A stretch of DNA of 64,000 nt from Rhodococcus sp. WMMA185 (GTDB lineage Bacteria; Actinomycetota; Actinomycetes; Mycobacteriales; Mycobacteriaceae), in contig NZ_CP017014.1 in the NCBI RefSeq assembly GCF_001767395.1, positions 124,001 through 188,000 on the forward strand, in the 5' to 3' direction. The notes below the pieces were generated by a model. The model saw nothing but the letters and a program-made list of their open reading frames with translations, searched no databases and was not told the DNA's origin. The position numbers and the translations under genes were made by a program. Of this stretch, positions 3,605-30,343 are shown piece by piece. The stretch's first letter is position 1; each line of letters begins with the position of its first letter.

Positions 3605-6600
3605 TTGCAACCCGCCGAATCGAAGAGGACCGTTGGTTCGGGAACGGGAAGCGGGGAGCGCTTCCCGCTTTCGGCTGCGCAACGGGCCATCTGGTTTGCT
3701 CAGCAACTCGACCCTCAGGTTTCGGTCGCTATCGCGCAGTACGTGGAACTCGAGGGAGATCTCGATATCGACCTGCTGCGCGAATCGACAGTGGCGGTCG
3801 GCCGCGAATTCGAGTCACCGTTCCTGAAAGTCGTCGACGTGGACGGGCAACCGTTCCAATACGTCGACCACGACACCGACACGTCAATCGCTTTCATCGA
3901 CTTTCGCGGCGAACAAGACCCGACAGCCTCCGCACACGACTGGATGGATTCGGACTACGCGCGACCGCTCGACCTCGCGAGGGATCGTCTCGTCGAGACC
4001 ACAATCCTGTGTATCGGAGACTCTCACTACCTGTGGTACAGCCGGATTCATCACGTAGCGCTCGACGGTTACGGTGCAATGACGATGGTGCGGCGTATCG
4101 CCGATCGATACACGGCAAAGGTCGAGGGTCGCGAACCGGTTCCGAACGGGCCTGCAGATCTTCGAAAGCTCTACGAACTCGATAGCGAATATCGATCCTC
4201 GTCCCGGTTTGCCACGGATCGTGAGTACTGGGTGAGCAGGGTCGGAGGGCTCACAGGATCGAGTCTGGGTGGGCCCCCGGCGCCGGCACTCGCCCAAAGC
4301 AAGGTCGTGAGCGGCTTGCTCTCCGACGCCGCCGCCTCCTCGAGTTCGGCCGCCACCATCGTCGCGGCCTTCGCCTGCTATCTGTCCCGCATGACGGGAA
4401 AAACCGATGTGCTGGTGACCATTCCGGTGTCCGCGCGAACGACCAAGCTTCTCCGCAACTCCGGTGGCATGATGGTCAATGTAGCTCCGCTTGCGGTGCA
4501 CGTCGATCCCGACGACACGGTCGAAGACCTGGTGTCGCGGGTGCAACGCGAGCTGGTTGGTGCGCTGCGCCACCAGCGGTGCAGCCTCGACGACATCCGC
4601 CGCGACGTCGGTGAGTCCAGAGGTGCGCAGCTGTACGGGCCCATGGTCAACGTGATGCTGTTCCATCAGACGGTGACCCTGGGTTCGTTGCTGGGTGAGT
4701 TCCACATCGTGACATCAGGGCCTGTCGAAGATTTGCTGATCAATGTCTATCAAAGCGGCACACCCGAGAGGCTTCACGTCGACTTCCGTGCGAACCCGAA
4801 TCGGTACGAAGACGTGGACTTGCGTGACCAGCACAGGCATTTCGTCGAGTTGCTCGAGGAATTCGCGGTCGCCGACCAGGACGCCCGGGTGGACAGCATT
4901 CACGAGATCAGCGCCCGTGCGGGCGAACGACTGCTGAGCGAGGCGGCCGAGGTCGAGTATTGGCGGCAGAAACTCGCCGGGCTTCCGGAACTGTTGCCGC
5001 TGCCGACGGAGCGGCCGCGGCCCGCACGCTTGTCTCCGGCGGGCGATCGGATGTCCGTGACGCTGCCGGGCAGGTTGCACCGCCGCATCACTGCGATCGC
5101 CGAAGATGCCGGTACAACAACCGGTGTGGTGTTCTTGGCGGCGCTGTCGGTCCTGCTGGGCCGATTGACCGGCAGTGATGACATAGCCGTCGGAACGACA
5201 GTCGATGTGGGCGACCGTACCGACGTGGTGGTGGTTCGCACCCAGTACTCGGGTCACGCTTCGTTCCGGGAGTTTCTGGTGCACGTCGATGCTGTCGCGG
5301 CCGAAGCCAAGCAACACACGGGTGTTCCGTTCGAACAGTTGGTGCGCGAGCTCGACGTTTCGAGGACGGACGCCTACGCGCCGATCATCCAGGTACTTCT
5401 CGATTCACGCCCGGCCGGTATGCGCGGTGCACCTGTCTCCGGCCTCGATGTGTGCGTATCAGTGGCGGAAAAGGTAGACGAATCGGGCAAGCCAGCGGGT
5501 GCGACCCTGGAACTCGTCTACGCCACAGACCTGTTCGGATCGAGATCGATCCGTACTTCGGTTGAGCGGTGCAGGCGAATTCTCGATGCGATTGCCGCCG
5601 ACGCGGATGTGCGAATCGGGGATATCCCGATTCTTTCCGATACGGAAAGGTCTGTACTGACACCGATACGCGGCCGACCGGGCCGCTCCGAGCGCACCCT
5701 TGCGGATCTGTTCGCAAGTGCAGCAGCGCTCGATCCGAAGGCGACGGCTTTGACGTTGCAAGGGGAGGAGATTTCGTACGGCGAATTGGATCGGTGGTCG
5801 ACCCAGGTTGCGCGACTACTGATCGAGCGTGGTGTGGGGCCGGAATCCTTTGTTGCATTGGCACTTCCTCGCTCATTTCACTCGGTGGCGTCGGTCTGGG
5901 CAGTCGCGAAGACCGGGGCCGCCTTCGTGCCTGTCGACCCGAACTATCCGACCGAGCGGATCGATTACATGCTCGACGATTCGGGCGTCACACTGGGATT
6001 GACCGAGCACTCGCTGCGTGACAGACTCGATGGTTCGATTCCGTGGATCTGCCTGGACGACTCCGACTTTCGTGCGAAGTGCGCGGTTCAATCCGAATCG
6101 CCTCTGACCGATGCGGATCGCGTGCGCCCGTTACGCATCGACAACGTGGCTTATCTGGTTTATACATCGGGTTCGACAGGGCAGCCGAAAGGTGTGACCG
6201 TCACCCACCGTGGGTTGGACAAGTTCGCGAAGGATCAGCAGGAACGTTTCGGTGCTACGAGATCCTCCCGGACTCTGCACTTTTCGACACCCAGCTTCGA
6301 TGCCTCGATGTTCGAGTACCTGCAAGCATTCGGCGTCGGCGCCACGATGGTGGTCGTGCCGCCGTCGGCGTACGGCGGCACCGAGTTGGCCGAACTGCTT
6401 CGTGCGGAAGGCGTCACTCACGGGTTCATCACCACCGCGGCGCTGGGTACGATCCCGCCCGAGGGGCTCGAGCACTTCCTCGACGTCGTCGTAGGAGGAG
6501 AGGCCTGCCCACCAGAGTTGGTGGCCAGGTGGTCACCGGGGCGGCGGTTGCACAACGCGTACGGCCCCACCGAGACCACCATTATGGCGAACATCAGCGT

Positions 6601-30343: not shown

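What the first reader, a model, noticed from the sequence alone, without database searches (positions are those of the whole stretch)
3605..30343. Single-gene seven-module NRPS, probable humimycin-type lipopeptide synthetase
One frame encodes starter C, seven A-T units, two E domains in modules 3 and 5 and a terminal TE. All catalytic motifs I checked are intact apart from the deliberate-looking half C domain. Thr at 2 and 5 and D residues at 3 and 5 give an N-acyl-X-Thr-D-X-X-D-Thr-X-X heptapeptide. I recall that humimycins were designed from Rhodococcus seven-module NRPSs with this kind of pattern, whereas native products from such genes are little described.
Basis: partly seen in the sequence, partly recalled or inferred. 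Interest (0 to 1): 0.85.

Follow-up and report, generated by a model that had tools for sequence, protein, structure and literature searches.

The report
Giant Rhodococcus lipopeptide-making enzyme, not humimycin
One intact 26.7-kb gene of a Rhodococcus encodes a seven-step assembly-line enzyme for an unknown fatty-acid-tagged seven-residue peptide; it is a separate branch from the humimycin enzymes, and its first step carries a conserved half-domain that looks like a structural adaptor.

Summary
One 8912-aa frame (3605-30343, TTG start) encodes starter C, seven A-T units, epimerases in modules 3 and 5 and a TE, with all motifs checked intact; codes give Thr at 2 and 5.
"Humimycin-type" holds only for architecture. 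In modules 6-7-TE trees the gene and its orthologues form a clade (100/100) apart from the humimycin-type clade (100/99). Module 2 is Thr, not Ser, and the locus lacks the amidohydrolase, N-acyltransferase and MbtH reported for humimycin clusters. The same genome carries its own humimycin-type synthetase at 1.78 Mb. The window gene is a third, unnamed type, found in 13 of 28 genomes of its genus, including the genome I take to be R. jostii RHA1; I found no described product.
The half C is real and recurrent. It is the C-terminal lobe of an LCL condensation domain, without the HHxxxDG lobe and the floor loop and with a shortened latch. It sits between starter C and A1 at the N-/C-lobe junction (the XUC engineering cut) in synthetases of at least eight genera of the family; a 246-genome phylum sample showed none elsewhere. 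Modelled half-C+A1 superposes on the C-lobe+A platform of solved modules (Z 51.7, 2.6 A, 630 residues). Best reading: a non-catalytic C-A platform.

The parts
3605..30343 (+). NRPS gene, 8912 aa, single frame, TTG start
   Evidence: start supported by AAAGGGAAG and the orthologous GTG
3662..4918 (+). starter condensation domain (Cstart); closest solved structure RzmA-Cs 7C1H/7C1K
   Evidence: Pfam Condensation; PDB search E 1e-61, gate residue Ala
4949..5659 (+). half C domain: LCL C-lobe only, no HHxxxDG, floor loop deleted, latch shortened
   Evidence: Pfam Condensation 193-455; alignments; tree; model
5702..7189 (+). A1, code DAFFVGAIMK (substrate unresolved, perhaps aliphatic)
7202..7390 (+). 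T1
7475..8830 (+). C2 (LCL)
8930..10402 (+). A2, DFWNIGMVHK = Thr
10454..10651 (+). T2
10724..12079 (+). C3 (LCL)
12164..13636 (+). A3, DALFVGAVVK (same code as A1 of the own humimycin-type paralogue)
13670..13867 (+). T3
13940..15310 (+). E3 epimerase, HHLVVDGV
15407..16720 (+). C4 (DCL)
   Evidence: DCL by tree
16769..18241 (+). A4, DVLCVAGILK (substrate unknown)
18269..18466 (+). T4
18539..19894 (+). C5 (LCL)
19979..21451 (+). A5, DFWNVGMVHK = Thr
21479..21676 (+). T5
21755..23161 (+). E5 epimerase, HHTVVDGV
23261..24577 (+). C6 (DCL)
24620..26092 (+). A6, DGFFVGAVMK (Val/Ile-like)
26123..26320 (+). T6
26399..27772 (+). C7 (LCL)
27815..29287 (+). A7, DAFFVAAIMK (aliphatic-like)
29318..29515 (+). 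T7
29540..30340 (+). TE, GWSLGG
   Evidence: Pfam Thioesterase 2.3e-29
2650..3348 (-). TetR-family regulator, divergent neighbour
   Evidence: link to the NRPS inferred from position only
1302..2462 (-). acyl-CoA dehydrogenase; neighbour also in the RHA1-like genome
   Evidence: functional link inferred
412..1482 (-). 3-hydroxyacyl-CoA dehydrogenase (start uncertain); neighbour also in the RHA1-like genome
   Evidence: functional link inferred

Best explanation
The gene is an intact, conserved seven-module synthetase for a linear or TE-cyclised N-acyl heptapeptide of an undescribed rhodococcal type: acyl-X1-Thr-D-X3-X4-D-Thr-X6-X7. The starter C joins a medium or long fatty acyl group, probably from acyl-CoA (acyl-CoA or acyl-ACP serve known starter C domains), to residue 1 on T1. 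Modules 2-7 extend the chain, E3 and E5 epimerise residues 3 and 5, C4 and C6 accept the D residues, and TE releases the product. It is a sister type of the humimycin and NRPS-5 synthetases, not the humimycin synthetase. The half C between starter C and A1 is the acceptor (C-terminal) lobe of a former LCL domain. I infer that a whole starter C replaced the N-lobe of an elongation C at the N-/C-lobe junction, and that the remaining lobe was kept as a rigid, non-catalytic C-A platform holding A1 and T1 in position for the starter C. Shown: frame, domain order, motifs, codes, orthology, lobe identity, loop losses, purifying selection. Inferred: product, acyl length, the replacement event and the platform role.
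For: Intact frame and domains; orthologues with the same domain order and nearly the same codes in the four genomes read and A4 hits in 13 of 28 genomes of the genus; same neighbours in the RHA1-like genome. Distinct clade. Starter C matches RzmA-Cs with the gate residue R148 replaced by Ala and Y138 by Ile, the direction that lengthened the acyl chain in RzmA (PMC7804268). Half C: C-lobes group with LCL lobes (96/87), apart from starter (100/100) and DCL (100/99) lobes; floor loop absent in the sampled half Cs and latch shortened in most (loops as defined in PMC7804268); dN/dS 0.21 and 0.27, far below 1 though the highest of all domains; present in at least eight genera of the family; AF2 half-C+A1 pLDDT 87, pTM 0.82, superposing on C-lobe+A of Txo1 6OZV, Z 51.7, rmsd 2.6 A, 630 residues, TMq 0.88.
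Against: No product or expression data. The A codes at 1, 3, 4, 6 and 7 are not assigned with confidence. The half C evolves fastest of all domains, which also fits slow decay. The AF2 alignment held ordinary C-lobe-A rows in register, so the platform geometry is partly suggested by the input. The humimycin reference genes were identified by residue pattern and neighbours, not by accession.
Confidence: 0.78

Rival explanations
1. The gene is the humimycin synthetase of this species and makes a humimycin A/B analogue.
For: Same seven-module order with E in modules 3 and 5 and Thr5 (humimycin sequence PMC12024397); A3 and A6 codes equal or close to those of humimycin-type synthetases.
Against: Residue 2 is Thr, not Ser; codes 1, 4 and 7 differ; clades separated 100/100 and 100/99; no MbtH, amidohydrolase or N-acyltransferase among the genes examined at the locus, while a humimycin-type synthetase of another genome has MbtH and Amidohydro_3 next to it; a humimycin-type paralogue exists in the same genome at 1.78 Mb.
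Confidence: 0.07
2. The half C is a decaying remnant without function, tolerated as a long linker.
For: Highest dN/dS of all domains (0.21, 0.27), lowest or near-lowest identity among orthologues (62-79%), long branches and loop losses in other half Cs; an own-genome paralogue has Cstart joined to A by about 50 residues without it.
Against: dN/dS is still far below 1; it is present in at least eight genera; the lost parts are those that cross to the missing N-lobe, while the A-facing fold is predicted with high confidence.
Confidence: 0.25
3. The half C is an active partner: it pairs in trans or with the starter N-lobe to form a second or composite condensation site.
For: It keeps the C6/C7-like motifs ([19 protein letters not shown]).
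Against: The starter C has its own complete C-lobe, and the floor loop and most of the latch, which reach to the N-lobe, are missing.
Confidence: 0.05
4. The large ORF is an assembly artefact or a silent relic.
For: None found.
Against: Single contig, 100% complete; full-length frames of 8910-9029 aa in most orthologous genomes; purifying selection throughout.
Confidence: 0.02

Closest known systems
Humimycin A/B synthetases (R. equi IupU and the R. erythropolis gene)
   Same: One giant gene, starter C, seven modules, E in 3 and 5, Thr5, TE; the humimycin-type synthetases examined here also have the half C.
   Different: Ser2 against Thr2, different codes at 1, 4 and 7, separate clade, different neighbours.
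NRPS-5 gene cluster family of R. erythropolis (Ceniceros 2017, PMC5550956)
   Same: Same architecture and half C; the starter C is closer to this type than to the humimycin type. I assigned own 1833k and G012 3493k to NRPS-5 by inference.
   Different: Ser at 2 and 4. The paper reports a CoA ligase and an mce operon with NRPS-5; none was seen among the window genes examined.
Starter C domains of RzmA (rhizomide) and CDA synthetase
   Same: Closest solved starter C domains (7C1H/7C1K, 4JN3).
   Different: RzmA WT has Arg at the acyl gate, here Ala; neither solved construct includes a half C.
XUC exchange units (CAsub-A-PCP-CDsub) of Bode and co-workers
   Same: The half C starts at the N-/C-lobe junction that XUC engineering cuts, so the module reads as Cstart + CAsub-A-T-CDsub.
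   Different: Here it is natural and adds a whole extra lobe behind a complete C domain, with the floor loop trimmed.
Truncated C* domains of fungal NRPS such as FmqC
   Same: A truncated, presumably inactive C domain (mentioned in PMC10212144).
   Different: Fungal; the present half C is a C-lobe only, placed behind an intact starter C.

Membership tests
Starter-C lipopeptide NRPS | N-terminal C domain of the starter subtype with intact HHxxxDG | tested here: met
   Best PDB match is the starter C of RzmA, then CDA; forms a separate starter clade from LCL and DCL lobes
Starter-C lipopeptide NRPS | complete C-A-T modules and a TE | tested here: met
Starter-C lipopeptide NRPS | product is N-acylated | not testable with these tools
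   needs LC-MS/MS
Humimycin synthetase | seven modules with E in 3 and 5 | tested here: met
   humimycin pattern from PMC12024397
Humimycin synthetase | Ser-activating module 2 | tested here: not met
   A2 DFWNIGMVHK = Thr
Humimycin synthetase | falls in the same clade as humimycin-type synthetases | tested here: not met
   modules 6-7-TE tree, 100/100 and 100/99; humimycin-type rows assigned by residue pattern and neighbours
Humimycin synthetase | amidohydrolase, N-acyltransferase and MbtH in the cluster (Ceniceros 2017) | tested here: not met
   none in the window genes examined with Pfam; the only MbtH of the genome is at 3.23 Mb
Humimycin synthetase | direct alignment with the published R. 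equi and R. erythropolis genes | not tested
   no named sequences of these were retrieved; likely counterparts G161_1617k and G012_3182k were used instead
NRPS-5 family | Ser at position 4 | tested here: not met
   A4 DVLCVAGILK
NRPS-5 family | CoA ligase and mce operon in the cluster | tested here: inconclusive
   not among the 20 neighbouring ORFs scanned with Pfam; not every ORF was scanned
C-lobe platform (CAsub) | half C superposes on the C-lobe of C-A didomains together with A | tested here: met
   with the caveat that C-lobe-A rows were in the alignment
C-lobe platform (CAsub) | required for lipoinitiation | not testable with these tools
   needs in vitro assay

The most novel reading that the evidence does not exclude
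Starter-C modules of a large set of lipopeptide synthetases across the family (Rhodococcus and at least seven other genera) share an undescribed initiation architecture, Cstart-(C-lobe)-A-T, created by natural recombination at the N-/C-lobe (XUC) junction. The retained acceptor lobe is a dedicated scaffold needed to couple the starter C to A1-T1.
Probability: 0.45. Interest if true: 0.6.

Novelty: new variant of a known kind. Interest (0 to 1): 0.45.

Why it matters
It separates a conserved, uncharacterised lipopeptide type from the humimycins, so it should not be dereplicated as humimycin, and gives a concrete product hypothesis testable in R. jostii RHA1, a laboratory strain. The half-C architecture, if confirmed as a platform, would be a natural precedent for joining a starter C to modules at the XUC point and a practical rule for engineering lipoinitiation.

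Tried and rejected
Assigning side chains 1, 3, 4, 6 and 7 from the ten-residue codes: not resolved, left open. Regex extraction of codes gave wrong residues at some positions and was replaced by alignment to GrsA PheA, whose fragment I recalled; its known code served as internal check. AF2 of Cstart+halfC+A1 was poor for Cstart (pLDDT 60); half-C+A1 alone gave a good model. Literature searches for rhodococcal lipoheptapeptides or truncated C domains found nothing matching; one search was mostly noise. Rfam and tRNA scans were empty. The half C as a duplicate of the starter C was rejected by the lobe tree.

Full report
Observation. The window (genome contig C1:124001-188000 of a complete 4.44-Mb genome) holds one forward frame of 8912 codons at 3605-30343. 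Pfam Condensation hits, Pfam hits for A, T and TE and motif scans give Cstart - half C - A1-T1 - C2-A2-T2 - C3-A3-T3-E3 - C4-A4-T4 - C5-A5-T5-E5 - C6-A6-T6 - C7-A7-T7-TE. All checked motifs are intact except in the half C, which is Pfam Condensation 193-455 only. The TTG start has AAAGGGAAG just upstream, and the R. marinonascens orthologue (L001) has GTG at the aligned codon.

Substrate codes. By alignment to GrsA PheA (the PheA fragment was recalled, its known code is the internal check) the codes are DAFFVGAIMK, DFWNIGMVHK (Thr), DALFVGAVVK, DVLCVAGILK, DFWNVGMVHK (Thr), DGFFVGAVMK, DAFFVAAIMK. G007 (R. marinonascens), G005, G024 and G026 have the same order and the same or nearly the same codes. 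G005 has a 7,804,765-bp chromosome, which I recall as that of R. jostii RHA1. An A4 search at E<1e-200 finds the type in 13 of 28 genomes of the genus. The Thr assignments are firm; the others are not.

Relation to humimycin. Humimycin A is acyl-Tyr-Ser-D-Tyr-Phe-D-Thr-Val-Val; B differs at residues 4 and 6 (PMC12024397). Ceniceros et al. (PMC5550956) name IupU as the humimycin A synthetase, report amidohydrolase, N-acyltransferase and MbtH in humimycin clusters, and describe NRPS-5 of R. erythropolis as having the same architecture with other substrates. In the genomes examined, a humimycin-type pattern (X-Ser-D-X-X-D-Thr-X-X, no Ser4) is found in own 1780k, G012_3182k, G017, G025 and G161_1617k. 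G161_1617k has an MbtH gene at C1:1617459 and an Amidohydro_3 gene just upstream; own 1780k has an apolipoprotein N-acyltransferase-like gene beside it. An NRPS-5-like pattern (Ser2, Ser4, Thr5) is found in own 1833k and G012_3493k. In the tree of modules 6-7-TE the window type forms a clade at 100/100, humimycin-type at 100/99 and NRPS-5-like at 100/100. The window locus has none of the reported humimycin genes among the neighbours examined, and the only MbtH gene of the genome lies at 3.23 Mb. So the gene works like a humimycin synthetase but is not one. The limit is that I identified humimycin-type genes by pattern and neighbours, since no named reference sequence was retrieved.

Locus. Upstream, divergent, are TetR, acyl-CoA dehydrogenase and 3-hydroxyacyl-CoA dehydrogenase; downstream CorA, LigC- and LigD-like proteins and DUF6764. 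The two dehydrogenases flank the orthologue in the RHA1-like genome too, and ORFs matching the downstream genes in order and length follow there (not scanned with Pfam). That genome carries a second NRPS directly downstream (6278 aa) that looks like an NRPS-5 type without modules 3-4. A role of the dehydrogenases in acyl supply is conjecture.

Acyl chain. The starter C is closest to RzmA-Cs (7C1K/7C1H). At the RzmA gate residue R148 the window has Ala, and at Y138 Ile. In RzmA, smaller residues at 148 and Y138A shifted the acyl chain to C8-C16 (PMC7804268). A medium or long chain is therefore predicted, not shown.

Half C. (a) It is exactly a C-lobe: it begins at [25 protein letters not shown], where the C-lobes of C2, C3, C5 and C7 begin. 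(b) The 12 residues of the floor loop ([17 protein letters not shown] region) and about 14 of the latch are missing; the floor loop is missing in the sampled half Cs and the latch is shortened in most. These are the crossovers from C-lobe to N-lobe. (c) Half-C lobes group with LCL lobes (96/87), apart from starter (100/100) and DCL (100/99) lobes; a single origin within LCL is neither shown nor excluded. (d) dN/dS is 0.21 (window-G007) and 0.27 (G005-G026), the highest or nearly so of all domains but far below 1. (e) A profile of Cstart tail + half C + A1 start matches end to end in genera g1, g6, g10, g16, g22, g23, g24 and g27 of the family; ten loci of g6, g16, g23, g24 and g27 were read and have a 262-294-residue insert between Cstart and A1 core without HHxxxDG or the C5 motif. 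In a 246-genome phylum sample every match outside the own genome began at the C-lobe, that is, in ordinary modules (only a few candidates per genome were scored). (f) AF2 of half-C+A1 has pLDDT 87 and pTM 0.82 and superposes end to end on C-lobe+A of Txo1 6OZV (Z 51.7, 2.6 A, 630 residues; TMq 0.88). The alignment contained ordinary C-lobe-A rows, so this is supportive, not independent. (g) Own paralogue 4303k has Cstart joined to A by about 50 residues, so the half C is not universal.

Mechanism. I read the module as a starter C joined at the N-/C-lobe junction to CAsub-A-T, the unit boundary of XUC engineering (PMC11546977). The lobe keeps its A-facing surface and has lost what faced the N-lobe. 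The direction of the event and the need for the lobe are inferred. Slow decay of a useless remnant is the main rival.

Verdict. The synthetase is a new, conserved type of a known kind; the initiation architecture is a variant I did not find described in the papers searched, a library that lacks most subscription journals.

Noticed in passing
G000:C1:1780000-1861500 (L011-L014): Two further seven-module synthetases of the same genome about 26 kb apart: one humimycin-type (8995 aa), one NRPS-5-like (8948 aa).
   Followed up: partly
G161:C1:3637500-3664500 (L033-L034); G114:C21 (L041-L042): Thr2-type synthetases of genus g10 (8178 and 8214 aa) have starter C directly followed by T1: half C and A1 are absent as one block of about 735 residues, so T1 has no A domain in cis. 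Seven other g10 genomes have frames of similar length but were not read.
   Followed up: partly
G005:C1:5421001-5439900 (L025-L026): Second NRPS in tandem with the orthologue, 6278 aa, five modules, looks like an NRPS-5 type lacking modules 3 and 4.
   Followed up: partly
G010:C1:5630000-5657000: The orthologue is split into frames of 957 and 8088 aa, so probably broken or mis-sequenced in that genome.
   Followed up: no
L036 (G105:C7) and L039 (G048:C26): Their starter C groups with humimycin-type starter Cs while their modules 6-7-TE do not, suggesting a swap of the starter domain.
   Followed up: no
G000:C1:4302500-4330500 (L015-L016): Another seven-module synthetase (8209 aa) with Cstart joined directly to A1 and codes such as DVWEYGMVTK, a different class.
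   Followed up: no
window 61086-63992 (-): MMPL-family transporter about 31 kb from the NRPS; no link shown.
   Followed up: no
G000:C1:486834-490139: A further C-lobe-only hit (195-453) about 1.2 kb behind a complete C domain in a 3080-aa frame.
   Followed up: no
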